Virus record (IMG/VR): IMGVR_UViG_3300044712_002706
Coordinates: 1 to 64,000 of that record
DNA: 64,000 nt
Source of the DNA: a virus
Strand: one strand, 5' to 3'
The notes under the pieces are model-generated. The model was not told the origin of the DNA, did no database searches, and saw nothing but the letters and a program-made list of their open reading frames with translations. Made by a program: the position numbers and the translations under genes. Below are positions 4,605-58,838 of this stretch, piece after piece; within the stretch, counting starts at the first letter, position 1, and every line of letters starts with the position of its first letter.

Positions 4605-4622
4605 GGCATGCAGGAGGTTCAC

Positions 4623-5924: not shown

Positions 5925-5936
5925 CAAGGAGCTGAT

Positions 5937-6374: not shown

Positions 6375-6529
6375 ACCCATGGGTGTTGGCCGAGAAGTCA
6401 TCTGCCTGGACGTGGATGATTTTGACGGCCTGCAACGCCGAAGTGGGTGCTGAGAACGTGCGGCGGGAGAATGCTCTCGAAGCAGCCGGACGCCCACGGA
6501 TGCGGCCACCGATCAAACGAAGACGATAA
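5937..6529 (+). CDS. phage A tail assembly chaperone, frameshifted long form
   Basis: Predicted product of a -1 shift at 6281-6287: 117 residues in the first frame, then 80 residues in the -1 frame (from 6287 to the stop at 6529), 197 in all. The second part reads WYPIIRAAKLSGIDPWVLAEKS and has the composition of a real protein, unlike the zero-frame tail. It has no start codon or ribosome site of its own at its 5' end. This is the G / GT arrangement known in lambda and most long-tailed phages. Phage B keeps the same layout and length. Confidence 0.8.
6281..6287 (+). other. -1 programmed frameshift site A AAA AAC
   Basis: The heptamer A AAA AAC sits in the correct phase: the zero-frame codons are CTA AAA AAC. 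It fits the X XXY YYZ rule for -1 slippage and is kept in phage B inside the shared stretch CCTAAAAAACTCAG. The new frame is open for another 80 codons. Confidence 0.85.
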
Positions 6530-6542
6530 GCACAAGATATTT

Positions 6543-6613
6543 TCGCCACAGAGACACAGAGAGCACAGAGTTTTCGATTGGTTTTCTCTGTGATCTCCGT
6601 GTCTCTGTGGCGA
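6543..6613. repeat. MITE-like palindromic insertion
   Basis: Two 28-bp arms (6543-6570 and 6586-6613) match at 26 of 28 positions and enclose a 15-bp AT-rich loop. The arms are made of CACAGAG/CTCTGTG blocks, a type of intergenic palindrome common in environmental bacteria (from memory). Phage B has no such element at the same gene boundary, only a short unrelated hairpin at 62790-62824, so it was gained by phage A or lost by B. It lies between the chaperone stop and the tape measure start and encodes nothing. Confidence 0.75.
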
Positions 6614-6635
6614 TTTCATAATAAAGGACAAGACG

Positions 6636-9476: not shown

Positions 9477-9478
9477 AG

Positions 9479-10864: not shown

Positions 10865-11978
10865 AGACTACGCCCTGGATGTCTACGAGAACGTCCTGAA
10901 TGGCGGCACGTGGACGGGGACGATCACGAAGCAGGCCGAAGGCTGGCGGAGAAGCATACGCCGCAAGGGGGGCTTTTGGGATGGGCGCTTCAAACTGCGG
11001 GATGACCGGGGTGTGTTGGAAGATTTCTTCAACACCCAGATGATGGCCCACTTCGAGGAGAAGTGCGGCGGCAGTGTCACCTGGGAAGGCTTCATCGCCG
11101 ACATGGATGCGCCGGTGGAAGACCGGGACGGGTGGTATCTGGACGTGGGCGTTGACGGGTACGTGCACACGCTGGGGTCGGTATATGTGAGCGTGGGCGA
11201 CAATACGACCGGCGATGCCAGCGTGTGGGTCAACGATGTGCTGGGGGCCAGCTGCGAGTATGTGGCAGCCAAGGCCATCAGCACGAACACGCTGCAGGTC
11301 TTGCGCTCGAACGCCAATGCCCCACGCGTGTGGGATGAACTCTCCCGCATTGCCGAATTGGGCGACGGTACGGGTGCGCCGTGGCGCTTCTACATGGACG
11401 TGGGGCGGCGGGCAGTGTATGCGGCGGATAGCACGGCGGTGGCCTACTACGTCAATGGCGGCATCCGGCGGCGGCGCTCGTGGTCAACGATGTGGAATGC
11501 GGTGGGGGGCAGCTACATCGATGATGACGACAAAGTGCAGGCCTTGACGGTGGAGACCAATGCCGAGAGTGTGCGCCGGTTCGGGCGGCGGGAGCAGCGC
11601 ATGTATCGCGATGGCTTGCCGATGGCGGCGGCAGATGCCTTGCGAGATACCTACCTGAAGGAGAACGGCTACCCCTGGCCCAGGCCGGTGGGGACGATTG
11701 GCACAGTTGACCTGTATACCAGCATTGGCGACAAAGTATCGGTGCTTCCGTGGCGGGTGTTGCCGGGCGGGGTGATCCGCGACCTGAGCTACACCGTGGG
11801 TGGCAGCGACTATGGTGGTTGGCTGCAAGACCAGCGTGATTTCATGGTGGACGAAGTGGTGGCTGATGAGAAGGGTGTCAGTTTGCGCACCTGGCTGTTC
11901 AGCGATGCCGATTTGCTCGAAGCGCAGTTGAGCTACGCCAAGAGCACCAAAGAGATGGATTTTGACTTGAGAGATTGA
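10848..11978 (+). CDS. phage A baseplate/tail hub protein
   Basis: 376 residues with an AGGAGA site inside the end of the previous gene. Rich in Trp, Tyr, Gly and Asp, beta-type, with a basic segment (GGIRRRRSW). Lies between the distal tail protein and the fibre, where tail-associated hub proteins are found. I see no lysozyme or peptidase motif. Function is inferred from position. Confidence 0.5.
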   Translation: MPNPAKDYALDVYENVLNGGTWTGTITKQAEGWRRSIRRKGGFWDGRFKLRDDRGVLEDFFNTQMMAHFEEKCGGSVTWEGFIADMDAPVEDRDGWYLDVGVDGYVHTLGSVYVSVGDNTTGDASVWVNDVLGASCEYVAAKAISTNTLQVLRSNANAPRVWDELSRIAELGDGTGAPWRFYMDVGRRAVYAADSTAVAYYVNGGIRRRRSWSTMWNAVGGSYIDDDDKVQALTVETNAESVRRFGRREQRMYRDGLPMAAADALRDTYLKENGYPWPRPVGTIGTVDLYTSIGDKVSVLPWRVLPGGVIRDLSYTVGGSDYGGWLQDQRDFMVDEVVADEKGVSLRTWLFSDADLLEAQLSYAKSTKEMDFDLRD

Positions 11979-11997
11979 TCTCTCACGAGATTGAGTT

Positions 11998-19454: not shown

Positions 19455-19456
19455 GG

Positions 19457-20764
19457 TTAACCTGCCGTTCTGACGTCAATCTTGCCGGTGACGGCCTCGG
19501 AGATGAGGGCGGTGCGGTATTCTTGCAATAACCCGATTTGTTGATTTATAAAAGCGCTTTGCAACTCAACTTTAGGTTCAAAAGACTCGACTTTAGCGAT
19601 TATTTCTGCGTGTTCTAACGCTGGTGGTATCGGTATTGGCAAGGCCTTTAACTTCTCATTCGTCAAATGTCCAAAGGTCGCCTTATCTGAAAGAATGTCA
19701 ATATAGCCATTCTTGGTTAGAAAATACATCCAGTAATATAGCCATTTTGTGGTTATGTTTTTTAGCGGCCTGGCACGGTTCAATGAGTTTTGAAAGTAGC
19801 ATTCTTCTAGTTCCCCGCTCCAAATTGCAGACCTCCCAAGAGTTACACCACCTTCTGTAACTAATAAATCACCAGGTTGAAGTAAATATCTTTCAAGTTG
19901 GTTTTCAGTGAAACCCATTTTGTTTACACCAACTTCATCTAGAAGGATCTTGTTCCAGTGGATATTTGCTGCTCTCAAGTAAGGTTTTACCAACTCATAT
20001 TCTTCTTGTTTAGAACTATCAAGCATTTTCCCAAGTTTGACATCAAAAAAATACCTTACAGTGGTCATTACCCAATGACTCGGTATCTCCCCCAGCCACT
20101 CAATCCCCGAATCCTTCATTGGCACGTCGGGATTCAGCCCCTTGGTCACCGCCTGGTTGATGAGCGCCGTGCGCTGCTCCTGCAGCAGCTCGATCTGGCG
20201 CTGTTTCTTGGCGATCAGACGGTCAATCTGAGCGGTCTTGCGGTCGAGGAAGCTAGCAATAGCTTGTTGTTCGGGGAGAGGAAAATACGGGAGTTCTAAT
20301 TCTTGAAAAATATTGAAACTGAATGATGATGAGCGTTCTCGAATTCCTTTTGCAAGTGATTGAATGAACCCGTTATATGCCATCATCCTAAGCAAATAAG
20401 CATAATATTTGGTTGATGCTTCTTTTCTTGGGGTACAAACGGTATAAACTGGTGTGCTTTTGCCATCTGAATCAGAAACGCCAATCGCTCCAGCAAAACC
20501 ATCCATTTCGTGGATAACTAAATCACCTTTCCTAATGCCTTGATATCCTATCTCTTTTAGCGCGATTGTAAAACCCTCTACACGTCTATTTGCTCGTAGT
20601 GTTACTTGGCCGTCACGAAATGCTGTGATAATCTCATCTGCTTCTCGTACTGGCCTCTCCATCTTTTTGAAAATAAATTTTGCCCTATTAAATGCCCAAT
20701 GTTCTGGAACTATACCAAGCCAGGAATAACCACTCTTTTTGTACGCTGGATACGGTTTCATCAA
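19457..20764 (-). CDS. hsdS: type I specificity subunit
   Basis: 435 residues with two target-recognition domains (about 10-160 and 215-365) and two conserved helical repeats (around IASFLDRKTAQIDRLIAKKQ and EIIAKVESFEPKVELQ). Each recognition domain reads one half of a split target. Its start overlaps the hsdM stop. By eye, the recognition domains are AT-rich while the central repeat is GC-rich and matches its neighbours, the usual sign of domain exchange. Confidence 0.92.
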   Translation of the reverse strand: MMKPYPAYKKSGYSWLGIVPEHWAFNRAKFIFKKMERPVREADEIITAFRDGQVTLRANRRVEGFTIALKEIGYQGIRKGDLVIHEMDGFAGAIGVSDSDGKSTPVYTVCTPRKEASTKYYAYLLRMMAYNGFIQSLAKGIRERSSSFSFNIFQELELPYFPLPEQQAIASFLDRKTAQIDRLIAKKQRQIELLQEQRTALINQAVTKGLNPDVPMKDSGIEWLGEIPSHWVMTTVRYFFDVKLGKMLDSSKQEEYELVKPYLRAANIHWNKILLDEVGVNKMGFTENQLERYLLQPGDLLVTEGGVTLGRSAIWSGELEECYFQNSLNRARPLKNITTKWLYYWMYFLTKNGYIDILSDKATFGHLTNEKLKALPIPIPPALEHAEIIAKVESFEPKVELQSAFINQQIGLLQEYRTALISEAVTGKIDVRTAG

Positions 20765-22488
20765 TCCAAAATCTCCCCCAACAAACCATCGGTCTCGGCT
20801 TCGAGTGCCAGGATGTCGGCTTTGATCTCGGCCAGCGAGCGCAAAGGCTTGTACTCGTAGAAATACTTGGTGAAGCTGATTTCGTAGCCCACCTTGTCTT
20901 TGCTGCGATCCATCCAGGCATCGGGCACATGCGGCAGCACTTCGCGGGCAAAGTAGGCTTCGATGTCATCCTTGAGCGGAATTTTCTCGGTATCGCGTAG
21001 CGCCGGGTCAGGCTTGGGCTGGCCACCCGCACCTTTCAGCCCTGGTAGACCAGGCTGCTCAGTTTTCAAAGGCCGCTCGACAGTAACTTTGGTGTAACCG
21101 AAATCGGTATTGTCGAAGATTCTGCTGACTTTGCTCTCGGCAAAGGTTGTAAAAATCTCGGTGATTTGACGAATGTGTTCATCCGTAAAAAACTTGCGTT
21201 TACTGCCCAGATTCTTACGCATACTCTCATAAAAATCTATAGCGTTGACGAGCTGCACCTTACCTTGGCGGTGTTTAGGTTTCCGGTTGGTGACGACCCA
21301 GATGTAGGTGGCGATGCCAGTGTTATAAAACAAATCCATAGGCATGGCGACGACGGCTTCGAGCATATCGTTCTCGATAATCCACTTGCGGATGTCACTC
21401 TCGCCAGAACCGGCGTCGCCGGTGAAGAGCGGCGATCCGTTGAAGATGATGGCGATGCGGCTACCGCCGGCCTCCATTTTGGAGATCATGTGCTGCAAGA
21501 AGAGCAGCGCCCCGTCGCTGGAACGCGGCAGCCCGGCGTGGAAGCGCCCGTGGGGGTCATTGGCTTCGTTCTGGATGAAGTTCTCTTCTTTCTTCCAACT
21601 GACACCAAAAGGTGGGTTACTGAGCATAAAGCTGAAGCGCTGGCCCTTGAATTTATCCTGCGTGAAGCTGTTGCCCTGGCGGATGTTCTCGGCGTTTTCG
21701 CCCATAATCAACACGTCCGATTTGGCGATGGCGTAGGTCTGTTCGTTGAGTTCCTGGCCGTACATCACCACTTCGAGATCGGGGTTGATCTCGTCTTCGA
21801 TGTATTCTTTAGCCGTGATCAACATACCGCCGGTGCCAGCCGCCGGGTCAAACACGGTGCGGATGATGCCCTTGCCCTGTAGCTCGGCCCGGTGCTCTGC
21901 AAACAACAGGCTGACCATCAGGCGGATGACTTCACGTGGCGTGTAGTGCTCACCAGCGGTCTCGTTGCTCATTTCCGAAAAGCGGCGCAGCAGCTCCTCG
22001 AAGATATAGCCCATGTCGTGGTTGGTCACGTTGGTGGGGCCGAGATCAACTTCGGTGAATTTGTCCACCAGCAAGAAAAGCAGATCATTCTTGGCGAGTT
22101 TGGCGATGATCTTGTCCAACTGGAAGTTTTCGATGATCTCGCGCACGTTGCGGCTGTAGCCGTTGAGATAGTTACCGAAATTGAGTTCGATGTTCTTGGC
22201 ATCCTGGGCCAGGCGGCGCAGGTCATAGAACGAGTGATTGTAGAAGTTCAGTCCCCCGGCAGCCTGCTGCAAAATGGGGATGATCTGCTCCTCGTTGAGG
22301 GCGGCCTTGAACTGCTCGTGGGCCTTGATGACGGCGTCTTTGTTGGCTTCGAGCACCATGTCCAGGCGACGCAGAACGACGAAGGGCAGGATCACGTCGC
22401 CGTATTCGTGGGCTTTGAAGGCACCGCGCAGGGCGTCGTCGGCGACAGTCCAGATGAAGTTGGCTTTTTCGGAGAAGTTGTTGGGCAT
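20761..22488 (-). CDS. hsdM: type I DNA adenine methyltransferase
   Basis: 575 residues from MPNNFSEKANFIW. The upstream extension is rejected because it runs into the previous gene. Motif I DPAAGTGGML and motif IV NPPFG identify an N6-adenine methyltransferase. The N-terminal helical domain (HsdM_N type) and C-terminal coiled coil are present. It methylates host DNA and, with HsdS and HsdR, forms the restriction complex. It starts about 10 bp after the TPR gene stop, and its stop overlaps the hsdS start. Confidence 0.95.
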   Translation of the reverse strand: MPNNFSEKANFIWTVADDALRGAFKAHEYGDVILPFVVLRRLDMVLEANKDAVIKAHEQFKAALNEEQIIPILQQAAGGLNFYNHSFYDLRRLAQDAKNIELNFGNYLNGYSRNVREIIENFQLDKIIAKLAKNDLLFLLVDKFTEVDLGPTNVTNHDMGYIFEELLRRFSEMSNETAGEHYTPREVIRLMVSLLFAEHRAELQGKGIIRTVFDPAAGTGGMLITAKEYIEDEINPDLEVVMYGQELNEQTYAIAKSDVLIMGENAENIRQGNSFTQDKFKGQRFSFMLSNPPFGVSWKKEENFIQNEANDPHGRFHAGLPRSSDGALLFLQHMISKMEAGGSRIAIIFNGSPLFTGDAGSGESDIRKWIIENDMLEAVVAMPMDLFYNTGIATYIWVVTNRKPKHRQGKVQLVNAIDFYESMRKNLGSKRKFFTDEHIRQITEIFTTFAESKVSRIFDNTDFGYTKVTVERPLKTEQPGLPGLKGAGGQPKPDPALRDTEKIPLKDDIEAYFAREVLPHVPDAWMDRSKDKVGYEISFTKYFYEYKPLRSLAEIKADILALEAETDGLLGEILD

Positions 22489-22498
22489 GGGGAGAAAG

Positions 22499-24487
22499 TT
22501 AGGGCGTAGGGGTAGGTTGTTGAAGGGAGCGAATGTTTTGTTCGATTTCAGAGCGAAGAACAGGACTTGTGGTAATAGTAAGGGCGTGTTGGTAGTCGGC
22601 CAGTGCGAGGTCTGATTGGCCTTGCTTCGTATAAATCTCACCGCGTAATTTATAGGTACAAGGAAGGCAAGCCATTTCTGGAGATGCAATACGAATAACT
22701 TCGTTGAGGTCGGCCATAGCTAGTGAATATTGGCCTTGATCTGCATAGACGAACCCGCGCGCGTAAAAAGCTGTAGCGTTATTGGGATTAAGTTGAATGG
22801 CTCGTGCAAAGTCAGCGAGTGCTGCAGGATAGTTATGGAGCTGACTATAAGTGTTACCGCGATTGAGATATACAAGGGTATTGCTCGGATCAAGTTGAAT
22901 GGCCTTATTGAAATCTGCCATAGCGGAGGGATAATCTGGGATATTGAGATAAACAACACCACGATTGACATAAGCTGCAGTGTAATTGGGATCAAGGTGG
23001 ATTGCTTCGGTAAAGTCGCTGATAGCGGATGTTTGATCCTGGGTGACAACATACATAACACCACGATTGTAAAAAATAGTGGCATCGTTAGGATTGATTT
23101 GGATAGCTTTATCAAAATCACTTATAGCGGCGTCGTAATCTCGAGTGAATGAGTAAATAGTACCGCGTCTGTTGTAAGCATCCGCATTATCAGGATCGAG
23201 TTGAATGGCTTTACTAAAGTCAGCTATCGCAAGAGAGTAATTTTGAATATCGGTGTAAACAATACCCCGGCTAAAGTATGCTGAATAATTCTTGGGGTCG
23301 AGTTGGATAGCCTGATCGAAATCGGAAATAGCAGATTGGTATTCTTTTGTTTCGGCATAGAGTGAGCCGCGGTTTTTGTAAGCTATAACAAGCTTAGAAT
23401 CATATTTGATGGCTTGAGTGAAATCGGCGATTGCGTAAGGATAGTTGTGAGTGCGAAAGTAGGCTACACCGCGATCGTTGTAGGTACAAGCAAGACAAGC
23501 TAAATCCTGTTGAGCAAAGTGAATGGCATCATTAAATGATTCGATAGCTTTGTCCCAATCCTGCATAGCACTCAATGTTGTACCGCGATAGTAAAGAGCT
23601 TCTGAGCGCGTTACAACATCTTCAGCCCATGATGATCGGGAAAGCGCTTGGTCAAAACGTTTCAATGCGGCAGGATAATCACTGGCTTGGTAACGAACAT
23701 AGCCACTGAGAAAGAAAATAAAGGTAGTAAGTTCGTGACCGATATCTTGCTGGAAGGTGAACGAATCAAGTTTTGTGCTGGCGGCTTGGACTTGCAAGGT
23801 TTCGTCCGCATCAAGAATATCTACCTTCTCAGGATGGATATTCTCAATATGAAGAGTTAGGCGCACATCAGTAGTTGTTTTACCGTAATAGCCCCAAATA
23901 ACAATATCAGCATGGTGCTTTTCGCCGATTCCGCGAGCATAAACACTGCCTTGTTCTTCGGCGATTGTTTCAGCAAGGGATATCACTACGGTATCCGTAT
24001 ATACAGCAAGAGAATCTTTAAGCTGAGTGGTCAGTTCTTCTGTAATGCGATAATTCTTTGGATCAGGGCCATCTATTTTAGTAACGATAACGACAATTTT
24101 ATTTTCAAGTTCGGCCTTAAGATGCTGTTCCAGCCAGTAATCGTAGCCGAAGTAAATGCCCCAAGAAATCCACCCCAAGATAACAGCACCGAAGGTTATG
24201 CGGGCGATTTTAAGCCAACTATAAGGGAGTAGTGGTTCCTTTCTTTTTTCTACCAGTTGGGGATGCTTCGTAATAATGGTGGGTTGAATGATCTGGGTAT
24301 GCCAACCAATAGATGCGATAGCCAGAATAACAGTGACCAAACCAAAAGCGATAAGACCGACGATGACAAGGTTTTGCTGGAATAGGGTGACAAACCCCGC
24401 GATAGCAACAACAGCGGTGATGAAGGCAGATACCTTGCCCCAGATGGAGGCTAGAAATTGGCTGAATTGTGGCTTATCGTCAGACAT
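22499..24487 (-). CDS. membrane-anchored TPR protein
   Basis: 662 residues. Two membrane segments at about 15-57 and a third near 95-112, then an alpha/beta domain (about 130-235), then about eleven TPR units of 34 residues (YNRRGTIYSFTRDYDAAISDF type) to the C-terminus. Two units contain a CLxCTY motif. TPR arrays bind partner proteins. It is the first gene of the hsd-direction block and ends about 10 bp before hsdM, so it may be co-transcribed with it. Clearly AT-richer than hsdM by eye. No catalytic motif seen. Confidence 0.8.
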   Translation of the reverse strand: MSDDKPQFSQFLASIWGKVSAFITAVVAIAGFVTLFQQNLVIVGLIAFGLVTVILAIASIGWHTQIIQPTIITKHPQLVEKRKEPLLPYSWLKIARITFGAVILGWISWGIYFGYDYWLEQHLKAELENKIVVIVTKIDGPDPKNYRITEELTTQLKDSLAVYTDTVVISLAETIAEEQGSVYARGIGEKHHADIVIWGYYGKTTTDVRLTLHIENIHPEKVDILDADETLQVQAASTKLDSFTFQQDIGHELTTFIFFLSGYVRYQASDYPAALKRFDQALSRSSWAEDVVTRSEALYYRGTTLSAMQDWDKAIESFNDAIHFAQQDLACLACTYNDRGVAYFRTHNYPYAIADFTQAIKYDSKLVIAYKNRGSLYAETKEYQSAISDFDQAIQLDPKNYSAYFSRGIVYTDIQNYSLAIADFSKAIQLDPDNADAYNRRGTIYSFTRDYDAAISDFDKAIQINPNDATIFYNRGVMYVVTQDQTSAISDFTEAIHLDPNYTAAYVNRGVVYLNIPDYPSAMADFNKAIQLDPSNTLVYLNRGNTYSQLHNYPAALADFARAIQLNPNNATAFYARGFVYADQGQYSLAMADLNEVIRIASPEMACLPCTYKLRGEIYTKQGQSDLALADYQHALTITTSPVLRSEIEQNIRSLQQPTPTP

Positions 24488-36142: not shown

Positions 36143-36241
36143 TGCTACAATAAGTCCGTGAAGGTGAAACTTTTCCAGGGTATGCACCTCCACGGTTTGC
36201 TGTTGGGCCAGACCTATCTTGATAGGATTCTGGCCTTTTTC
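36143..36241 (+). ncRNA. compact promoter-hairpin-terminator RNA before integrase
   Basis: An extended -10 (TGC TACAAT, 36143-36151) is followed by a stem ccgtgaaggtg / cacctccacgg (36156-36166, 36185-36195, one mismatch). A terminator follows: outer stem ggccaga / tctggcc (36206-36212, 36229-36235), inner cctat / atagg, then TTTTT. The predicted RNA is about 85 nt with no reading frame. It lies between the divergent initiator operon and the integrase, 44 bp before the integrase start, so it may be a free RNA or an attenuator of integrase. Confidence 0.6.
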
Positions 36242-43032: not shown

Positions 43033-43494
43033 ATGGATCAGAATCAGAATGCAGTTTTGTTTGTTGGATATCTCACGCTCGAGGAGTGGCTTCGGGCAGT
43101 GGATAAGAAGCGCCCGGTGTTTGCCGTGATGACGGCAACCGATGAAACGATGAGCTACATCGTGCGACGTGAGATAGTCATTGAAGTGGCGCAACCGGAG
43201 AACGTCCAGGCTATGGTGCATTACTGCCGCATTCTTGCCGGGCGCATGTCGTTTATGGGCGACTCCCCCGTCGAGAGCGATCACCCTGTGCGCACCGAGC
43301 GAGCACAGGGTTTGATGCGCATCATCGAGACCTGGCTGGAAGAGAAGGGGTTGACGGTGCTGCACGGGGCAATTGCCACGCCAATTGGGATGCAGTTCGT
43401 GAAAGGTTGGGCGGATTTCGTAACACTCGACAAGGCCACGCAAATGTTTGTATGGCCGGCGCATGATGCGCAGGAGGCTCTTGACAAATCATAG
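43033..43494 (+). CDS. early protein of unknown function
   Basis: 153 residues, with a GGAGG site spaced 7 bp from ATG. Alpha/beta (LFVGYLTLEEWLRAVDKKRPV; EKGLTVLHGAIATPIG). Ends the early operon. The -35 box of the following RNA promoter lies inside its last codons. No motif recognised. Confidence 0.55.
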   Translation: MDQNQNAVLFVGYLTLEEWLRAVDKKRPVFAVMTATDETMSYIVRREIVIEVAQPENVQAMVHYCRILAGRMSFMGDSPVESDHPVRTERAQGLMRIIETWLEEKGLTVLHGAIATPIGMQFVKGWADFVTLDKATQMFVWPAHDAQEALDKS

Positions 43495-43593
43495 ACCGTT
43501 TGTGCTATAATGACAGCGGCGACATGTTCTCCCTGTTTTCCACTTGTTCTCCCTCCTTAGAAGACTTTCCCCGGTTCCCCTCGCCGGGGAAAG
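43481..43593 (+). ncRNA. candidate small RNA 1: pyrimidine-rich leader plus C-rich loop
   Basis: TTGACA (43481-43486), 19 bp, extended -10 TGC TATAAT (43506-43511). The predicted RNA holds two copies of TGTTCTCCCT as single-stranded pyrimidine blocks and a 10-bp perfect hairpin ctttccccgg / ccggggaaag (43565-43574, 43584-43593) with loop TTCCCCTCG. There is no clear T-run. No reading frame. CUCCCU and CCCCUC could pair with ribosome sites. Confidence 0.5.
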
Positions 43594-43614
43594 CGCTTTA
43601 AGACAGCTTTATAA

Positions 43615-43743
43615 GTAGACCGAGTGTGCTATAATATGCGTGCCCGTTGGCAGGTTGCCCCCCTCAATCTGCGACGGGCCTCCCTTCAATACCCATATTT
43701 TAAAATTTTATTGGTAAACCCGGCCCGCTGACGAGCGGGCCGG
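43615..43743 (+). ncRNA. candidate small RNA 2: C-rich loop TGCCCCCCTCA
   Basis: A second copy of the promoter motif (21-bp block tagaccgNNtgtgctataat type, here 43615-43635) is followed by a hairpin gcccgt / acgggc (43642-43647, 43674-43679) whose inner part contains TGCCCCCCTCA. A 10-bp stem ccggcccgct / agcgggccgg (43720-43729, 43734-43743, loop GACG) comes last and may end transcripts from both sides. No reading frame in it. Confidence 0.5.
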
Positions 43744-43756
43744 TGCGGTTTATGAA

Positions 43757-44197
43757 CTATGGACAAAGTTTATACTCGTTCCATTCGAGTTTCTTGATAG
43801 CGGGGTCGTCAGAAAGAACATAAAAAGTTCCAGAAGATACAATAGAATCCCGATCTTTCCACCCTGTTGTTCCGTCTGGGTACTTCACCTTTAAGCCTTT
43901 TCCGCTGGGCATGGATGGGCAGTCGCTGGAGCCGCCCAATATCTCGAAAGCGTAGGTTTTTTCTTCTCCTCCCCCATAGTAAATCTTTACGCCAGCGTAG
44001 ACTTTCGCAAGTGGAGATGAGTATTTTTCCGCCGTTTTTGTTGCTTCTTCTGTTGGGTGTGGCGATGATGGTGCAGAAGAGTCCCGTGGCTGAAGTACAA
44101 AATAAGCAATGATGATCGCCGCAATCGAAGCGAAAAAAGTGTACTTGAGACACGAGTTTCCCTGTCGTCTCTGTTGGTGTTCTCCGAACGTTGTCAT
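43757..44197 (-). CDS. membrane-anchored protein with outer beta domain
   Basis: 146 residues from MTTFGEHQQRRQG, AAGGAG before ATG. One membrane segment (about 20-38), a Ser/Pro/Thr linker, then a beta domain (VYAGVKIYYGGGEEKTYAFEILGG ... GKGLKVKYPDGTTGWKDRDSI) of SH3-like look with one Cys pair possible. Only minus-strand gene in the early/late gap, so it may be expressed in the lysogen (a moron) and act at the cell surface, for example in superinfection exclusion. The function is a guess. Confidence 0.6.
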   Translation of the reverse strand: MTTFGEHQQRRQGNSCLKYTFFASIAAIIIAYFVLQPRDSSAPSSPHPTEEATKTAEKYSSPLAKVYAGVKIYYGGGEEKTYAFEILGGSSDCPSMPSGKGLKVKYPDGTTGWKDRDSIVSSGTFYVLSDDPAIKKLEWNEYKLCP

Positions 44198-44245
44198 GAT
44201 TGGCTCCTTTTTGATAGATATATGGATATGTTGTCCCATGTGTAA

Positions 44246-44277
44246 ATTATATCCCCGAGTGCTTGCGCGCAAGCACT
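44246..44277. promoter_or_regulatory. divergent control region with 20-bp palindrome
   Basis: agtgcttgcgcgcaagcact (44258-44277) is a perfect 20-bp palindrome between the divergent genes at 44197 and 44322. A minus-strand TATAAT (44246-44251) lies so that the palindrome covers its -35 region, as an operator would. The 14-bp core gcttgcgcgcaagc recurs at 39413-39426 and 48606-48619. Confidence 0.6.
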
Positions 44278-44321
44278 ACCAGCAAATATGCAGTACAATT
44301 GTTCTGCAAAGGGTCTGATGT

Positions 44322-44531
44322 ATGACAAACAGTCCGGCTGCGGAACAATTGAGCGAGCGGGAAATGATACAGGTTGCGAATAGCCTCGTGGCGCACATCG
44401 GCACGAAGCGGTTTATCTTACTGGCCCAACTATTAGAAGACGTGAAGAAAGATACCCGGTATGGCCACATTTCTATTGTGGTGGTAGACGGCCGGGTGCG
44501 GGGGATGAAGGCGGAGAAGAGCTATGAATAG
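44322..44531 (+). CDS. small regulator-like protein before lysis cassette
   Basis: 69 residues, AAAGGG before ATG, TACAAT box at 44294-44299. Helical N-terminus (LSEREMIQVANSLVAHIG ... RFILLAQLLEDVKKD) and a basic strand (SIVVVDGRVRGMKAEK). It lies between the palindrome and the first copy of the twin RNA element. Could be a late-gene regulator. Family unknown. Confidence 0.6.
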   Translation: MTNSPAAEQLSEREMIQVANSLVAHIGTKRFILLAQLLEDVKKDTRYGHISIVVVDGRVRGMKAEKSYE

Positions 44532-44544
44532 TACCAAAATCCTG

Positions 44545-44643
44545 TATAATTAATTTAAGCCTACGCCGTAGGCCTTGACCCTAGAGCACTGGGTATCCAG
44601 CGGGGTCGTTTGCAGTTTATTCTGCAAACGACCCCGCTTTTTT
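44545..44643 (+). ncRNA. twin structured RNA, copy 1 (before lysis genes)
   Basis: TATAAT (44545-44550), then hairpin gcctac-GCC-gtaggc (44559-44573). A 32-nt core identical to copy 2 follows (from 44576). It runs into a 17-bp perfect stem (44599-44615 / 44622-44638, loop TTTATT) followed by six T. The predicted RNA is about 85-90 nt without a reading frame and ends 20 bp before the holin-like gene. GACCC in the core can also pair with GGGGTC of the terminator stem, an antiterminator-like choice. Compared with copy 2 the terminator stem shows three compensatory pair changes. Confidence 0.75.
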
Positions 44644-44665
44644 GTTGTTTTGCTTAGGAGGCAAT

Positions 44666-45133
44666 ATGAAAAACAATCGTGTGATCAACCTGGTTTTATC
44701 GGCCCTGATGCTGGTGGCGCTGATTTTCGTGTCTGCGCACCCGGCCAGTGCCCAAGCTCAAACACCACCGGCGTCTGTGGATGCGTGGCTTGCGTTCGGC
44801 AAGGAAATTGCCACGCGGGGGGCGTGGTTGGGCCTGATCATCCTGCTCGACCTGATCTTGGGCGTCACCGTGGCGGTCAAGAATAAGACATTTCAATGGC
44901 AGAAGCTGGCGGACTTCCTCGGCGATTATGGGCCGAAGGTGGTGGGCTGGCTGTGTCTGGAAGTGTTACGGATGCTGCCGACGGATGTTGCTGCCGTCGC
45001 CGGCGTCGTGGGTACATTGGGCGTTGGCGCGTATGCCATCATTGTAGTAGCGGCTGTGGGCAGCGTGCTCAGCAGTGCCCAGGGCCTGGGGATAGTTCCG
45101 GCCAATGCGCCGGGGGTTTCGGCGAAGGGCTAA
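44666..45133 (+). CDS. holin-like membrane protein
   Basis: 155 residues from MKNNRVINLVLSALML, AGGAGG before ATG. A signal-like N-terminus ending ASAQA, a membrane segment (about 43-62, AWLGLIILLDLILGVTVAV), an amphipathic middle, and another membrane segment (about 112-133). It resembles small phage holin families that pair with a following endolysin gene. First gene after the twin RNA copy 1. Confidence 0.65.
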   Translation: MKNNRVINLVLSALMLVALIFVSAHPASAQAQTPPASVDAWLAFGKEIATRGAWLGLIILLDLILGVTVAVKNKTFQWQKLADFLGDYGPKVVGWLCLEVLRMLPTDVAAVAGVVGTLGVGAYAIIVVAAVGSVLSSAQGLGIVPANAPGVSAKG

Positions 45134-46750: not shown

Positions 46751-47449
46751 ATGCACGATACGCAACCCTGGGAGCGATTACCCGATGAGCCTGGCCCGTG
46801 GTTTCAGCGGTTCGAGCGGTTTCGGATTATGGCCGACCGCTCTGTTTTGGCCGCCTTCAATCAGTGGCGTCTCGCGAAGTCTCGCGGAGTCTCGCGCTCT
46901 GCGCCGAGATCGTGGAGAAGTGCGGCGGCCCGCTGGAGATGGTACGAACGGGCCGAAGCGTGGGATCAGCACGTGGCCGAAGAAGCGGCGCTGCGGGCCG
47001 AGGCCGAACGGATGGCAATCTATCAGAGCGGATATGCCCAGCGGCATGAGCGTGTGCGCAAGCTCAATGCCCTGGCCGAACTTCTTTTTACGGAAGTTGA
47101 AGACGAAACCAAGCGCTGGCTTGACGATGTCAAATCCATTGGACGGGGCGATTTTGCGCACGAAGTTGACATTGTGCGCTTCAATGCGCCACTTATTGAG
47201 CAAGCCCGTAAGACCCTCGACGACCTGGCGCGGGAGATGGGCGACCGGGTTCAGCGTCAGGAGCATTCCGGCCAAATCTCCGTGCCCGTGTTGGGCGGCG
47301 GTGATGTGAGCGCGATGGATGACGGCCAATTACGCGGTGCGCTCGGTACTATCAGCCGGATCGCCGGGGCGCTTGCGGCAGGAACGAGCCTACCAGCAGG
47401 CGATCCAGGTGATTCGGAAAGCGATCCAACAGGCGAAGACGAGGAATGA
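46751..47449 (+). CDS. small terminase subunit
   Basis: 232 residues, 5 bp after the endolysin gene. RWRWYERAEAWDQHV in the first third is the hallmark of phage terminase small subunits. The rest is helical (AERMAIYQSGYAQRH ... FNAPLIEQARKTLDDLAREM) with an acidic tail. It recognises the DNA packaging site. The stretch before the motif is odd: a triple tctcgcg repeat (46871-46902), and a neighbouring frame reads more like a normal N-terminal domain there. Overlaps the large subunit by 131 bp. Confidence 0.75.
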   Translation: MHDTQPWERLPDEPGPWFQRFERFRIMADRSVLAAFNQWRLAKSRGVSRSAPRSWRSAAARWRWYERAEAWDQHVAEEAALRAEAERMAIYQSGYAQRHERVRKLNALAELLFTEVEDETKRWLDDVKSIGRGDFAHEVDIVRFNAPLIEQARKTLDDLAREMGDRVQRQEHSGQISVPVLGGGDVSAMDDGQLRGALGTISRIAGALAAGTSLPAGDPGDSESDPTGEDEE

Positions 47450-48224
47450 GCTAACGCCTGAGATTGTAGCGGCGTATGCCGCCCTGCACCTTACCACAGA
47501 CGACAACGTACCCATCGAGCCGGCAGCGCACCACATTTTGTGGCTGCGCCTGTTGTGTGACGAACGCATCAAGAAGCTGCTGATTATTGCCCCGCCAGAA
47601 AGCGCCAAAACGACCTGGTTGCAGGCTTATCTGGGCTGCCGGTTGGGGTTCTGGCCTGAGCAGAGCATCATCATCGGTTCGGTGAGTGGGCCGGTGGCTG
47701 AAAAACGCTCGCTGAGCTTGCGGGCTATGGTAGACAATGCCACCTGGCAGGCGACCTTTCCGGGCATCCTGCCGGTGAAAGCGGCAGAGGGCCTGACCTG
47801 GGCAACGACTGAATGGAGCATGGCCCCCGGGGGCCGCCCGAGGTCGGGGCGCATCCACCCCAGCATTGCCAGTTATGGCACGGGTGGCAGCGTGATCGGC
47901 AGCCGTGCCGACTTCGTTCTGGGTGACGATTTGCTCGATATGCGAAACAGCCGCACTGCCCACCAGCGCGGACTGGTTGAAACCTGGTTTCACAGCTCGT
48001 TGCTGAGCCGACGCAAGAGCCGGGTTGGGCGGTCTGTGCTGATTGGAACGATGTGGCACCACGACGACCTGTACGCCAAAGCGCGGCGGGATGGTTCGTG
48101 GGTGGTGTGCCACGTGCCGCTTTTATCAGATGGGCCGGACGTGTATGCAGAGTTGAGCTACCCAGATAGCTGGCGTTATGAGCGCCTGGGTGAGCCGATT
48201 TCTCGGGCGGTGTTGGATGGCTGA
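47319..48224 (+). CDS. large terminase, ATPase half
   Basis: 301 residues. Walker A-like APPESAKTT (91-99), Walker B VLGDDLLD (acidic pair 203-204), and GTMWHHDD (243-250), the motif III/C of viral packaging ATPases. It ends at a stop 8 nt into the second half. The first 30-40 residues overlap the small subunit, so the true start may be an internal GTG or ATG. It powers DNA packaging at the portal. All ATPase motifs are present but the nuclease domain is in the next frame. Confidence 0.85.
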   Translation: MTANYAVRSVLSAGSPGRLRQERAYQQAIQVIRKAIQQAKTRNELTPEIVAAYAALHLTTDDNVPIEPAAHHILWLRLLCDERIKKLLIIAPPESAKTTWLQAYLGCRLGFWPEQSIIIGSVSGPVAEKRSLSLRAMVDNATWQATFPGILPVKAAEGLTWATTEWSMAPGGRPRSGRIHPSIASYGTGGSVIGSRADFVLGDDLLDMRNSRTAHQRGLVETWFHSSLLSRRKSRVGRSVLIGTMWHHDDLYAKARRDGSWVVCHVPLLSDGPDVYAELSYPDSWRYERLGEPISRAVLDG

Positions 48225-48975
48225 GACACGCCGCTTATTACTGCACCGGAACGGGCCGGCCTTATGGCCTGAGCACAAGCCCCTCCACGAAGTGCTTGGC
48301 CTGATGAGTGAAACCCCGGAGACGGTCTGGGAAACCACCTACCAGGGAAACCCGACTCCGCCCGCGGGCACTGTCTTTCGCCGGGAGTGGTGGCGAGAGT
48401 CCAACCGCTACGACGCGGCGGATCGGTCGCATCTTGCGCAGTGTGTGGCCCGCTGGATTTCGTGGGACACCGGTCTGAAGGACGCCGACGGCAACGCTTA
48501 TACGGCTGGCGTGGTGGGCGAGTTGTGGCCCGATTACCGGATGGCCGTGCGTGAGATTTACCGGGAGCGTTTGCAGTTCCCGGATTTGCCGCCCAAGATT
48601 GAATGGCTTGCGCGCAAGCACAATGCCGATGGAAAACTGCGGGGAGTGATCATCGAAGACAAGGCGAGCGGCATCAGCGCTTATCAAACGCTGCGGGCAA
48701 GCGCAAATGACTGGCTGGCCGACATCTTGATCGCCTTCGAGCCAAACGGCGACAAGATTGTGCGGGCCAACCAGGCGGCGGTGTGGTGTAAGAATGGATG
48801 TGTTCTTTTACCCTGGCCGGGCATGAGCGTGCCCTGGCTGGTGGACTTTGAAGACGAGCTGTTCAACTTTCCGGGCAGTTCGTTCATGGATCAGGTGGAT
48901 GCCTTTGATCAACTGATCCTGTATACCGAGAACCTGCTGGCCGAGGGCTGGCGGGCAAGAAAAGGCAGTAACTAG
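48217..48975 (+). CDS. large terminase, nuclease half
   Basis: 252 residues from MAETRRLLLH, in the +1 frame relative to the ATPase half and overlapping it by 8 nt. Begins exactly where the linker between domains lies (ALWPEHKPLHEVL ... TTYQGNPTPPAGTVFRREWW). Nuclease acidic residues are present: Asp84 (SWDTGLKD), Glu147-Asp148 (GVIIEDKASG), Asp225/Asp228 (SSFMDQVDAFDQ). It cuts concatemeric DNA. No A-rich slip site is seen at the overlap. GGGCGGTG upstream of ATG may serve as its ribosome site. Confidence 0.85.
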   Translation: MAETRRLLLHRNGPALWPEHKPLHEVLGLMSETPETVWETTYQGNPTPPAGTVFRREWWRESNRYDAADRSHLAQCVARWISWDTGLKDADGNAYTAGVVGELWPDYRMAVREIYRERLQFPDLPPKIEWLARKHNADGKLRGVIIEDKASGISAYQTLRASANDWLADILIAFEPNGDKIVRANQAAVWCKNGCVLLPWPGMSVPWLVDFEDELFNFPGSSFMDQVDAFDQLILYTENLLAEGWRARKGSN

Positions 48976-50147: not shown

Positions 50148-51950
50148 ATGGCAATTCGGTTTGACGCTCTAGCCGACTATATATACAGGACTACCAGCCT
50201 GCCATCGCTCACAACACATACCTGGATGGCCTGGGTCTATATTGCCGTAGACCAGAACGCCGCCAGCGATATGTGGTTGTTCCTGGATGGCGCAGGAGGG
50301 TATTTCACGCTCGGAACAGCGTCGGATGGAACCACATTACGAGTTGTCAGTTCGACGGTGTCGGAAACTACTGGAACTAACCTGTCAACCGGCACCTGGT
50401 ATCACATCGCCCTTGTAAAGAGCGGATCAAGTGTGTCGGTGTATGTAGACGGCAATCTTGACATCGGCAGAACGGAATCGGTGTCTTTTACGCCGGCTTA
50501 CATCGTCATGGGGTCAAACTCTGTCAGTCAATATCTCAACGGTCGAGTTGACGATGTAAAAATCTGGTCTGGTGTTGCACTGACCCAGGCTGAGATACAG
50601 CAGGAAATGGTTATTAAGCGGCTGGTGCGCACGGATGGCATCAACGGTTTTTATCCAACATTTCCCGGCGCAAGTGAACGCCTGCTGGATTACAGTGGTT
50701 TAGGTCGAAACTGGTCGGCAGGCGGCACGCTGACCGACGAAGACCCGCCACCAGTTAGTTGGGGAAGCCCTGACCCGATTGTACTTGTGGCCGTGGCGAC
50801 ATTGGTTGTCCAGGATGCAGCCAGCGCCAGCACGCTCGATAATGCCGCGCTGACCCAACACCATGCCCTGGCTATCGCCGACGGCGCAAGTGCATCGGCT
50901 CTGGACAATGCTGCACTGACACAGCACCACCATCTGGCTGTGGCGGATGCGGCCAGTGGTGCAGCCCTCGATGGTGTTGCTTTGACCCAACACCACGTGC
51001 TGACGATTGGTGATGCTGCCAGCGGGACGGCGCTCGATAATGCCGCCCTGACCCAGCACCACCGATTGGCGATCAACGACGCAGCCAGCGCCAGCACGTT
51101 GGATAATGCGGCGCTGACCCAGCATCATCAGATTGCTATTCAGGATGCCAGTAGCAGCACGACCCTGGATCAGGTCAGCCTTACCCAGCATCACCAATTA
51201 GCTGCCCAGGATGCGGGCAGCGCCAGTGCCCTCGATGGCGTAACGCTGGCCCAACACCATGTGCTGGCCGTCGCAGACGAAACCAGCGCGACGGCGTTGG
51301 ATAATGCCGATCTGACGCAGCACCACCATCTGACCGTAGCAGATGCGGAATGTCCATCAGCGTTGGATGGCGTATCCCTGGCCCAGCACCACGTGTTGGC
51401 GGTCGGAGATGCGACTTGCGGCACGGCCCTGGATAATGTCACCCTGGTGATTGCAGGGCAGCTTGTGGTGGATGATCTGACGGCTGCCACGGCCCTGGAG
51501 CCGGTCTCGCTAACTCAGCATCACACGTTGGCAATTAGCGATGCCGTAAGTGGCGCATCCCTGGACAATGTTACCCTGGCGGTCGCAGGCCATCTTGACG
51601 TAGACGAACTGGTATCTGCAACATCCCTGGACACAGTGACGCTCGCTCAGCAGCACCGGCTTGTGACCCAGGATATGGCGAGCGCATCCACCCTGGATAA
51701 TGTCACGCTCCTGGGCACCACCACCACCCTGGCGATTGATGATGCGGACTGTGCCACGACGCTCGAAACGGTTACGTTTGAGATAACGGTCATCGTCACG
51801 CTGTACGCTCGTGACCTGGCCGTGACGCTCGAAGAGCGCAACCTGGCCGCCACCTTTTACGCTCGCAACCTGGCTGAGACACTCGACGAGCGCAACCTGG
51901 ATGTCGATCTGCCGGGCCGACGCCTGGCATTCACACTGGAGGAACGATGA
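50148..51950 (+). CDS. fibre-like protein: LamG domain plus fifteen 22-residue His repeats
   Basis: 600 residues. N-terminal LamG/concanavalin-like domain (about 1-190: TWMAWVYIAVD, TGTWYHIALVKSGSSVSVYVDG, LNGRVDDVKIWSGVALTQAEIQ). Then about fifteen tandem 22-residue units of the form LxVxDAxSxxxLDxxxLTQHH (about 222-550), and a last set of 9-10-residue units (TLYARDLAVTLEERNL). Predicted beta-solenoid or trimeric fibre whose repeated QHH turns could bind metal. The LamG end may bind sugars on the host surface. Confidence 0.75.
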   Translation: MAIRFDALADYIYRTTSLPSLTTHTWMAWVYIAVDQNAASDMWLFLDGAGGYFTLGTASDGTTLRVVSSTVSETTGTNLSTGTWYHIALVKSGSSVSVYVDGNLDIGRTESVSFTPAYIVMGSNSVSQYLNGRVDDVKIWSGVALTQAEIQQEMVIKRLVRTDGINGFYPTFPGASERLLDYSGLGRNWSAGGTLTDEDPPPVSWGSPDPIVLVAVATLVVQDAASASTLDNAALTQHHALAIADGASASALDNAALTQHHHLAVADAASGAALDGVALTQHHVLTIGDAASGTALDNAALTQHHRLAINDAASASTLDNAALTQHHQIAIQDASSSTTLDQVSLTQHHQLAAQDAGSASALDGVTLAQHHVLAVADETSATALDNADLTQHHHLTVADAECPSALDGVSLAQHHVLAVGDATCGTALDNVTLVIAGQLVVDDLTAATALEPVSLTQHHTLAISDAVSGASLDNVTLAVAGHLDVDELVSATSLDTVTLAQQHRLVTQDMASASTLDNVTLLGTTTTLAIDDADCATTLETVTFEITVIVTLYARDLAVTLEERNLAATFYARNLAETLDERNLDVDLPGRRLAFTLEER

Positions 51951-56029: not shown

Positions 56030-56038
56030 ATAATCTGC

Positions 56039-56141
56039 TATAATCAATTTAAGCCTACTATGCGTAGGCATTCGACCCTAGAGCACTGGGTATCCAGCGG
56101 GGTCGCTCACAGTTTATTCTGTGAGCGACCCCGCTTTTTTT
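56039..56141 (+). ncRNA. twin structured RNA, copy 2 (before capsid operon)
   Basis: Extended -10 TGC TATAAT (56036-56044), hairpin gcctac-TATGC-gtaggc (56053-56069), the same 32-nt invariant core as copy 1, and a 17-bp perfect terminator stem (56096-56112 / 56119-56135, loop TTTATT) with seven T. The stem differs from copy 1 at three positions on each arm and all three are compensated (T-A to C-G twice, G-C to A-T once). The unit starts 10 bp after the MuF stop and ends 49 bp before the scaffold gene. Confidence 0.75.
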
Positions 56142-56190: not shown

Positions 56191-56877
56191 ATGTTGTTCA
56201 AGCCCAAATCAGGATTGTGGTTCGCACCCAGCACGGACAACGCCACCGGGACATCACCCGTTCAGACACCGGATACAACGCCGCCGGCTGAGCCAGGTGG
56301 GTCGAACGGCGGAGCAACTGGGCCACAAGCTACCGCGCCGGCGTCACCGGCGGCGACCGCCAAGCCGCTGACGTTTGAGAGCGAAGAGAAGCTGGAGAGA
56401 TACATCGAGGATGCTCTGAAAGAGCGCTTGGAGCGTGCACAGAAGAAGGCCGATAAACTGGCCGCAGAAGCCCGCGAGAAGGCCGAAGCCGATGCTGCCG
56501 TCAAAAACGGCGAGTGGCAGAAGTTGGCCGAAACACGCGAGAGCAAGCTCAAAGAACTTTCGGCGCAGCTCGAAACCATCCCCGGATTACAGACCAAAGC
56601 TGAGCGTTACGAGAAGGCACTCAACGCCTACCTGGCGACGCAGCGCTCTGGACTGCCAGCACACGTGACCGTGCTGCTGGATAAGCTCGACCCGGTGGAT
56701 CAGCTCGAATACATCGCCAAAAACCGTGAAGCGCTCAGCCAAAACGTGAGCATTGCGAACGCTGGCAGCGCCCACATCCCACCCACGCCCACTGCGGGAA
56801 ACCCAGGCCAGATCACATCTGAACAGATGAACCAGGCCCGGCAAGCGCAGCTGGCGCGGACAAAGAGTAATTTTTAG
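56191..56877 (+). CDS. phage B scaffold protein
   Basis: 228 residues, counterpart of 1-666: the same MLFKPKSGLWFA start, a variable Gly/Pro/Thr segment, the coiled coil (EKLERYIEDALKERLERAQKKADK) and the basic KSNF end. The variable segment is 7-8 residues longer. First gene of the capsid operon after the twin RNA copy 2. Confidence 0.75.
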   Translation: MLFKPKSGLWFAPSTDNATGTSPVQTPDTTPPAEPGGSNGGATGPQATAPASPAATAKPLTFESEEKLERYIEDALKERLERAQKKADKLAAEAREKAEADAAVKNGEWQKLAETRESKLKELSAQLETIPGLQTKAERYEKALNAYLATQRSGLPAHVTVLLDKLDPVDQLEYIAKNREALSQNVSIANAGSAHIPPTPTAGNPGQITSEQMNQARQAQLARTKSNF

Positions 56878-56892
56878 TAACAGGAGTATTCC

Positions 56893-57693
56893 ATGACTGA
56901 TTTAGCGTTAGTCACTGCAAACCGCCTGTATCTGGTTGAAAGTCTGGAGCAGATGACCCTGCCCGCTGTGGAAGCGATTGTGGCGGGCCAGTCTGTTCGG
57001 ATCGACACCAGCACAGGCAAGTTCACCAAAGCCAATGGCACCACGGCCGCAGAAAAGCGGGCGTATGGCATGGCACTCAAGACCGTGGCCGCCGGGCAGC
57101 CGGTGACGGCGGTTCGTAAGGGTGTGGTAGATGGGTACGATTTATCGGGCCTGGCCTACGACGCCGATGTATATTTGTCGGATACCGATGGAATGCCGGC
57201 GGACGCCGCAGGCACCGTCGAGCGGAAAATCGCCAAGGTTATCCCAGCCTTTGCCACCACCCTGGGAACGGCGGCAGATAAACTGCTGCGCGTGGATTAC
57301 AACGAAGGCGAGCAATCGCAGGTATTGGTTGTCACCAGTGAATTACTGGCAGCCAGCGTGGATAAGTGGATGTTCGTAGCCGACCGCCCTTACCAGGTGA
57401 CCGGCGTCCGTGAAATCCATAGCGTTGTTGGCGGGTCCGGCGCAGTGGTACGCCCTCGCAAGGTGACCGCTGCCGGAACCGACGCCCCCGGTGCTGCAGC
57501 TGGCACGACCGTGAAGGAATTGACCGCCGCCGACATCGGCCTGGAAACCACCATCAACACCACCCAAAGCCCGGCGCTTTCGGCCACCGCTGCCGACCTG
57601 CTGTTGGCCGCCGGTGACAAAATCGGCCTGAACCTGGGCGGCACATTGACCGGCTTGGTGGGGAGCATCTCCATCATCCTGAAGGCGCTGTAG
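56893..57693 (+). CDS. phage B capsid decoration-like protein
   Basis: 266 residues, the same length as 679-1479 and alike throughout (shared start MTDLALVTANRL, shared KEIHSVVGG/REIHSVVGG region). The best conserved parts are the first 100 residues and the last 80. Ribosome site AGGAGT. Role as for the phage A copy. Confidence 0.65.
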   Translation: MTDLALVTANRLYLVESLEQMTLPAVEAIVAGQSVRIDTSTGKFTKANGTTAAEKRAYGMALKTVAAGQPVTAVRKGVVDGYDLSGLAYDADVYLSDTDGMPADAAGTVERKIAKVIPAFATTLGTAADKLLRVDYNEGEQSQVLVVTSELLAASVDKWMFVADRPYQVTGVREIHSVVGGSGAVVRPRKVTAAGTDAPGAAAGTTVKELTAADIGLETTINTTQSPALSATAADLLLAAGDKIGLNLGGTLTGLVGSISIILKAL

Positions 57694-57703
57694 GAGGCAC
57701 ATC

Positions 57704-58795
57704 ATGGCTAACCAAGTTCTTATGGGATTTCTGAACCTTCAGGGTATGTTCGACCAGCGCGTAAGCTCTGTCAACATTGACCTGATCAACACTGCTATTC
57801 AGCAGAGCGTGGATGAGCACAACCGGCAGGTTGCGGCAGTGATGTCGTTATTCGTCGCCAAAAATCCGCGCTTCAACCAATCGCCAACAGTCCGTTTCAA
57901 AACCCCTGTTGCGGTTCGTAATCAACCCCTCGATGAAAATGGCCGCGCTCGCCCGATTCGTGTAGCGGGTCATTATGACGTGGCGTTCCCCCTGCAAGGC
58001 AGCGGTAACGCCTGGGGTGCGAATTTCGTGGCCCGCGAGAAGATGACGGTGGAAGATGCCAACAACATCACTGCCACCCTCATCGATGGCGACACGCGTT
58101 GGATGCGTGACCACGTACTGGCGGGCTTGTTCACCAACGTCAGTTGGACGTATACCGACGATGATGACGATGTGGGCAGCCTGACCATCAAAGGCCCGGC
58201 CAACGGCAACACCGACACCTATCTGGTGCAAGGTGGTGCAGATGCGGGTGCGACCGATACCCACTTCCTGGCGCAGTCTGATGCTATCGCCACTGCCCAC
58301 AACCCATTCCCGACCATGTATCAGGAACTCATGGAGCACCCTGAGAACGGCGGGGAAGCGGTATGCTTCGTGCCGACATCCAATAAGGCTGCCGTCGAAG
58401 GCGTCAGCGGGTTTGTGGTAGCACGCCGACCGAACGACCCCGTTCAACCGGGTTCAAGCACCGACGTGCTGGTAGGCGACCTGCCGGCCAGCGTTCCGGG
58501 CAAGCTCTTTGGGTATCTCAACGATACATGGATGGTTCACTGGCCGACCCTGCCGACGGATTACCTGATCGAAGTCGCCACCCAGGGCGAGCGAGCTTTG
58601 GGGATGCGCGAGCACCCCGAAGCCAGCTTACAGGGCTTCAAACGGGTGGCCGAACGCAATGACCATCCCTTCATGGAAGCGCAGTACCTTCGCTTCGCCG
58701 GGTTCGGCGCATGGAACCGGGTGGGCGTGGTCGTGCAGCGCGTGGGCAATGGCAGCTATGCCATCCCCACCAACTTCACCAGCCCGATGCCCTAA
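57704..58795 (+). CDS. phage B major capsid protein
   Basis: 363 residues, strongly similar to 1490-2578. Differences: a few inserted residues near position 52 (KNPRFNQSP) and a shorter C-terminus (TSPMP). The central segments DTRWMRDHVLA, TIKGPANG and VPGKLFGY are shared. The pair shows that both phages build the same type of head. Confidence 0.82.
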   Translation: MANQVLMGFLNLQGMFDQRVSSVNIDLINTAIQQSVDEHNRQVAAVMSLFVAKNPRFNQSPTVRFKTPVAVRNQPLDENGRARPIRVAGHYDVAFPLQGSGNAWGANFVAREKMTVEDANNITATLIDGDTRWMRDHVLAGLFTNVSWTYTDDDDDVGSLTIKGPANGNTDTYLVQGGADAGATDTHFLAQSDAIATAHNPFPTMYQELMEHPENGGEAVCFVPTSNKAAVEGVSGFVVARRPNDPVQPGSSTDVLVGDLPASVPGKLFGYLNDTWMVHWPTLPTDYLIEVATQGERALGMREHPEASLQGFKRVAERNDHPFMEAQYLRFAGFGAWNRVGVVVQRVGNGSYAIPTNFTSPMP

Positions 58796-58807: not shown

Positions 58808-58838
58808 AGCGGGGGCAGCCTGGCTGCCCCCGCTCTTT
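58808..58838 (+). terminator. terminator-like hairpin after capsid gene
   Basis: 11-bp perfect stem agcgggggcag / ctgcccccgct, loop CCTGG, followed by CTTTT. It takes the same place as the unrelated hairpin of phage A (2593-2624). Probably lowers connector expression relative to capsid. Confidence 0.7.

What the first reader, a model, noticed from the sequence alone, without database searches (positions are those of the whole stretch)
56039..56141. Copy 2 sits before the capsid operon: possible common switch for two late operons
Each copy lies directly upstream of a late gene block, one before holin/endolysin and one before scaffold/capsid. GACCC in the core can pair with GGGGTC of the terminator 5' arm, so an antiterminator and a terminator are mutually exclusive. 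This could be a leader attenuator released by a phage antitermination factor, in the manner of put sites in HK022 (known RNA antiterminators). Alternatively each is a free small RNA.
Basis: partly seen in the sequence, partly recalled or inferred. Interest (0 to 1): 0.72.

Follow-up and report, generated by a model that had tools for sequence, protein, structure and literature searches.

The report
Twin terminator switches before late operons
A bacterial virus carries two near-identical promoter, short RNA leader and stop-signal units, one in front of its lysis genes and one in front of its capsid genes, which probably hold both gene sets off until something lets RNA polymerase read through.

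Summary
Copy 2 (56039-56141) and copy 1 (44545-44644) are the only two copies of a ~100-nt element in the 76.7-kb record. Each has an exact TATAAT, a leader with a 5' hairpin, an invariant 32-nt block and a 17-bp intrinsic terminator. All six substitutions in the terminator hairpin fall in three compensated base pairs. One copy precedes a holin-like/lysis block, the other scaffold/capsid.

The sequence matches no Rfam, phage, plasmid or IMG/VR entry. No Q or CAT_RBD domain is encoded in the record.

New evidence is positional. A strong terminator lies within 200 nt upstream of the scaffold gene in 8 of 12 records (phage B and 11 relatives), with unrelated sequences and often below a sigma70-like promoter. 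G001 also has a second terminator at an early/late junction.

Best reading: a promoter-leader-terminator attenuator at each late block, released by an unidentified factor. put membership is not supported. Free-sRNA and insulator readings remain open. A third copy before the phage A scaffold cannot be tested: the contig starts at its ATG.

The parts
44545..44550 (+). copy 1: -10 element TATAAT (no good -35; TG directly before it, not an exact TGn)
44559..44573 (+). copy 1: 5' hairpin GCCTAC-GCC-GTAGGC
44577..44608 (+). copy 1: invariant 32-nt block GACCC...GGGGTCG; candidate antiterminator hairpin (GACCC with GGGTC)
44599..44643 (+). copy 1: intrinsic terminator, 17-bp stem, TTTATT loop, T-run
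44666..45133 (+). first gene below copy 1: 155-aa membrane protein, holin-like by position and hydrophobicity (no family match)
56036..56044 (+). copy 2: extended -10 TGCTATAAT; TTTACT 16 nt upstream of TATAAT as -35
56053..56069 (+). copy 2: 5' hairpin GCCTAC-TATGC-GTAGGC
56074..56105 (+). copy 2: invariant 32-nt block; candidate antiterminator hairpin
56096..56141 (+). copy 2: intrinsic terminator, 17-bp stem, TTTATT loop, T-run
56191..58795 (+). genes below copy 2: scaffold-like (56191-56877), 56893-57693, major capsid (57704-58795)

Best explanation
Each copy is a promoter-leader-terminator attenuator at the head of one of phage B's two late blocks. RNA polymerase starts just below TATAAT and by default ends a ~90-nt RNA at the terminator, keeping lysis and head genes silent. 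During lytic growth a phage or host factor lets polymerase pass, and because both copies share the invariant 32-nt leader block, one factor can open both blocks. I think it more likely that the factor recognises the nascent RNA block (working like a RAT/BglG antiterminator) than a DNA site in the promoter, because the -35 to -10 spacer differs between copies while the transcribed leader is kept. Shown: the anatomy, the compensated terminator stems, the alternative fold, and the recurrence of a terminator at this position in relatives. Inferred: transcription from the -10, default termination, the existence of the factor, and RNA recognition. Confidence is for the attenuator reading as a whole; RNA recognition in particular is about 0.3.
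For: Only two copies, both at late-block heads, with conserved -10 and 32-nt block and unrelated flanks. Terminator kept by three compensated pairs. Strong terminator within 200 nt upstream of scaffold in 8 of 12 records, each in the top 0.6-5% of windows of its own record. Promoter-like sites above these terminators exceed expectation (combined p about 1e-4), clearest in copy 2, L007, L008 and L011. L008 has a second such unit. G001 has a second strong terminator at the junction before another late block. The alternative hairpin forms first in folds of growing transcripts.
Against: Leader-to-arm pairing is no better than in shuffled leaders. Copy 1 has no good -35 (promoter score p = 0.10). 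No Q or CAT_RBD domain found in the record and no factor identified. Four of 12 records lack a terminator there. The promoter is weak or missing in G001, L013 and L020. Only two sequences of the element exist.
Confidence: 0.55

Rival explanations
1. Q-like processive antitermination: a phage protein binds DNA at or near the promoter, loads on paused RNA polymerase and carries it through this and later terminators. The leader RNA itself is not recognised.
For: Same layout as lambda pR' or the AlpA target: promoter, short leader, terminator (PMC7171158, PMC9371919). GafZ does this at a capsid-type cluster (PMC11150451). TATAATYAATTTAAGCC is conserved as DNA. A processive mechanism explains how a transcript opened at copy 1 could pass copy 2.
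Against: No Q21 or lambda-Q domain in the record. The -35 to -10 spacer, where the lambda Q, AlpA and GafZ sites lie, is not conserved between copies. It does not explain a 32-nt invariant block well inside the transcript.
Confidence: 0.2
2. Two free small RNAs of about 90 nt that act in trans on phage or host targets; the terminator is simply their 3' end and the position before late genes is incidental.
For: Anatomy of a typical terminated sRNA: promoter, 5' hairpin, conserved block, terminator with T-run. The shared block could be a seed region. Two other short ORF-less units lie at 43.5-43.75 kb.
Against: Both copies sit exactly at late-block heads, and a terminator recurs at this position in relatives with unrelated sequence, which fits a cis role better than a conserved trans RNA. 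No target found.
Confidence: 0.15
3. A plain insulator: a strong terminator that ends the upstream transcript or blocks read-through into late genes in the prophage, with no regulated release.
For: In L011, L013 and G001 a terminator follows the upstream gene without a convincing promoter. Terminators after genes are common.
Against: It does not explain an exact TATAAT at nearly the same distance and an identical 32-nt block in both copies, nor the promoters above the terminators in L007, L008 and L017.
Confidence: 0.15

Closest known systems
BglG/SacY RAT leader
   Same: A short conserved RNA hairpin overlaps the 5' arm of an intrinsic terminator, so the two forms exclude each other (PMC9981650, PMC3369936).
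   Different: No CAT_RBD protein in the record; no RAT sequence match claimed; genes are phage late genes, and the pairing is not better than in shuffles.
ANTAR (AmiR/NasR/EutV) leaders
   Same: Two upstream hairpins followed by a terminator, with several leaders sharing one regulator in one cluster (PMC3369936).
   Different: The loops here are 3 or 5 nt (hairpin 1) and 4 nt (block hairpin), without the two loops that carry A1 and G4.
Lambda pR'-tR' with Q; AlpA; GafZ
   Same: Promoter, short leader, terminator, then late or lysis genes (PMC7171158, PMC9371919, PMC11150451).
   Different: No known Q domain found; the conserved part is the leader, not the promoter spacer; two copies per phage with the same leader.
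HK022 put RNA
   Same: Two hairpins near the promoter, in two copies per phage (PMC9378689).
   Different: No sequence match; late rather than early operons; joined directly to a strong terminator that put would always suppress.

Membership tests
HK022 put RNA | Sequence similarity to putL/putR | tested here: not met
   blastn of copy 2 against 50,697 phage records gave no match at E up to 1; I did not confirm that the HK022 record is in that collection
HK022 put RNA | Two stem-loops in ~70 nt of early transcript | tested here: inconclusive
   Two small hairpins precede the terminator, but in late-gene leaders and with different sizes
HK022 put RNA | Factor-independent antitermination through contact with RNA polymerase | not testable with these tools
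   Needs transcription assays
BglG/SacY RAT | Antiterminator hairpin overlapping the terminator 5' arm | tested here: inconclusive
   Present and transiently favoured, but no better than in shuffled leaders
BglG/SacY RAT | CAT_RBD protein in the same element | tested here: not met
   PF03123 not found in the record; control genomes rang. A host copy elsewhere is not excluded
ANTAR leader | P1 and P2 loops with A1 and G4 | tested here: not met
   Loops read from the folds against the description in PMC3369936
ANTAR leader | ANTAR-domain protein | tested here: inconclusive
   PF03861 not found, but the control was silent
Q-type antitermination | Promoter, short leader and terminator before late genes | tested here: met
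   by sequence only
Q-type antitermination | Q-family protein (PF06530, PF03589) | tested here: not met
   PF06323 was not searched, and the prophage's left border is uncertain
Q-type antitermination | Conserved protein-binding element in the promoter spacer and a sigma-dependent pause site | tested here: inconclusive
   Spacers differ between the copies; pause not testable
Any Rfam family | Covariance-model score above the gathering threshold | tested here: not met
   best sub-threshold match ctRNA_pGA1, 26.1 of 45 bits, copy 2 only

The most novel reading that the evidence does not exclude
One small trans-acting factor recognises the same 32-nt nascent RNA in two leaders and opens the lysis and capsid blocks together by local, leader-specific antitermination, a late switch unlike Q, put or N. 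The promoter-leader-terminator layout would then be a common late-control device of this phage group, with the RNA sequence replaced from phage to phage.
Probability: 0.25. Interest if true: 0.7.

Novelty: new variant of a known kind. Interest (0 to 1): 0.45.

Why it matters
Late-gene control is known in detail for few phages, mostly lambdoid (my knowledge). A duplicated leader with compensated stems and a fixed core, in an uncultivated phage whose relatives often keep a terminator in the same spot, gives a concrete and testable switch for timing lysis and capsid synthesis together. It also warns that a sound-looking antiterminator fold can be a by-product of a GC-rich terminator arm.

Tried and rejected
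Searches for the element elsewhere: the exact 31-mer, a relaxed core and a gapped three-arm pattern in IMG/VR gave no true hit; the six matches are GACCC-rich repeats or chance. Phages and plasmids gave none. Homology of the L010 and L013 leaders to the element, suggested by eye, did not survive alignment. A trans-acting RNA from the 43.5-43.75 kb promoters pairing with the core was not better than shuffles. The 69-aa Cys-rich ORF 44109-44318 as regulator was dropped because it is antisense to a likely minus-strand gene. A leader peptide was considered: the frame is open through the terminator, but there is no visible ribosome-binding site and the changes between copies are non-synonymous, so I rejected it. 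The DUF2292-like 69-aa protein 44322-44531 as the factor: only its position supports it; family matches are below cut-off or absent.

Full report
Observation. The window is bases 1-64000 of a 76,662-base virus record. It holds the late region of one prophage ("phage A", 1 to ~15 kb), host-like genes including a type I restriction system, and a second prophage ("phage B") from an integrase at 36.3 kb. The element of the finding occurs exactly twice in the record, at 44545-44644 and 56039-56141 on the + strand. The flanks are unrelated. From 5' to 3', each copy has TATAAT (extended to TGCTATAAT in copy 2), YAATTTAA, a hairpin whose 6-bp stem is the same in both but whose loop differs (3 or 5 nt), a 32-nt identical block, and a 17-bp terminator stem that overlaps the end of that block, with a TTTATT loop and a T-run. 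Both fold far better than shuffles.

Selection on structure. Within the 67 nt from GACCC through the T-run, the two copies differ at six positions. All six are the two sides of three base pairs in the upper terminator stem. Placing six changes at random in 67 nt so that they make up three whole pairs of the 17 has odds near 7 in a million (680 ways of about 1e8; my arithmetic), before asking that each pair stay complementary. The tool's own shuffle control is weak with two sequences (47 of 500 reach the observed value), because it only redeals two letters per pair. I take the terminator to be real and maintained.

The claimed antiterminator. GACCC can pair with GGGTC of the terminator's 5' arm, enclosing CTGG-GTAT-CCAG or a close variant. 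Folding growing transcripts shows this hairpin as the minimum-energy form from about 56 to 80 nt; once the 3' arm is made the terminator wins by about 16 kcal/mol. But leaders shuffled with dinucleotides kept pair with the same arm as well or better in 264 of 500 (copy 1) and 164 of 500 (copy 2) cases, and the same test on seven leaders of relatives is unremarkable overall. Only the total folding energy of copy 2 stands out (11 of 500). The fold is possible, not demonstrated. The remaining argument is that this block is invariant while the upper stem drifts, and that rests on two sequences.

Relatives. No other copy was found in IMG/VR, INPHARED, PLSDB or Rfam at the sensitivities used. Capsid and MuF searches brought in 11 further records with a readable scaffold start, with capsids 51-58% identical where the capsid was the query. 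I scored the best terminator in the 200 nt before each scaffold gene. It is strong in 8 of 12 records: phage B -37.5, G001/L010 -34.2, L017 -31.0, L013 -25.9, L011 -24.9, L008 -23.5, L007 -21.9 and L020 -19.1 kcal/mol. Each is in the top 0.6-5% of windows of its own record. It is absent in L005, L006, L014 and L019. The sequences are unrelated to the element. Promoter-like sites lie just upstream more often than expected (combined p about 1e-4). Taken singly they are clear for copy 2, L007, L008 and L011, borderline for L017 and G001, and absent for L013 and L020 (sequences). L008 has a second promoter-leader-terminator before a later structural gene (17231-17274). G001 has a second canonical terminator at 47244-47293, at the junction before another late-looking block, in a place comparable to copy 1. 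What recurs is the layout, not the sequence.

Mechanism. The simplest reading is a short attenuated transcript at the head of each late block, released in lytic growth. Copy 2 lies downstream of copy 1 in the same direction, so a transcript opened at copy 1 would meet copy 2's terminator; a shared factor or processive antitermination would resolve this. I favour recognition of the nascent RNA, since the conserved part is transcribed and the promoter spacer is not conserved. A Q-like protein loading at the conserved TATAATYAATTTAAGCC remains a serious rival. No Q21, lambda-Q or CAT_RBD domain was found in the record; the ANTAR search is uninformative because its control was silent.

Comparison. 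It could work like attenuators such as RAT or ANTAR leaders (PMC3369936, PMC9981650) or like the promoter-terminator arrangement of Q, AlpA and GafZ (PMC7171158, PMC9371919, PMC11150451). It is not shown to belong to any of them. put RNA (PMC9378689) acts without a trans-acting protein, and no sequence match was found.

Limits. There are no transcript data, and there are only two sequences of the element. The promoter of copy 1 lacks a good -35. Transcription starts are placed by convention about 7 nt below the -10; the leader of copy 1 was taken about 5 nt too long, which does not change the result. Relatives were chosen by search success, not by a designed sample; L011 and L012 are near-duplicates and were counted once. 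The terminator test used one energy model and one set of thresholds set by me, after I had seen some of the terminators. The output was cut; the values used come.

Noticed in passing
window 43492-43757: Two tandem TGCTATAAT promoters inside a 20-nt repeat (43492-43511, 43616-43635), each followed by about 90-115 nt without an evident gene and with strong hairpins; possible small RNAs or leaders. No significant pairing with the element's block.
   Followed up: partly
window 47319-48975: The large terminase subunit of phage B is split over two overlapping frames (47319-48224 and 48178-48975): a frameshift, a real split or a sequence error.
   Followed up: no
window 43757-44272, - strand: A likely minus-strand gene with an N-terminal hydrophobic stretch inside the otherwise + strand phage B, just upstream of copy 1; no Pfam match.
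   Followed up: no
window 50148-51950: Array of degenerate 66-bp repeats (LTQHHxLAxxDAxSxxALDNAA-like) in a 600-aa protein of the late block.
   Followed up: no
window 58808-58834 and 2594-2623: Strong hairpins directly after both capsid genes, with different sequences, followed by short T-rich stretches.
   Followed up: no
window 36146-36236: The integrase gene (36285) is also preceded by a promoter-like site (TTGATT-17-TACAAT with TG) and a terminator-like hairpin, the same order of parts with another sequence.
   Followed up: partly
L008 17231-17274: Second promoter-leader-terminator (TTGACA-18-TAGACT) in the same relative, before another structural gene.
   Followed up: partly
G001 (record of L010) 47244-47293: Second strong terminator with T6 at the junction before another late-looking block.
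   Followed up: partly
window 1-14600 and record 56191-70141: The late regions of the two prophages are 59-90% identical by protein, highest in the tape measure gene (90%), while no early region of phage A was recognised in 1-36 kb.
   Followed up: partly
window 16497-22689: Type I restriction-modification genes (R, S, M) on the - strand between the two prophages.
   Followed up: no
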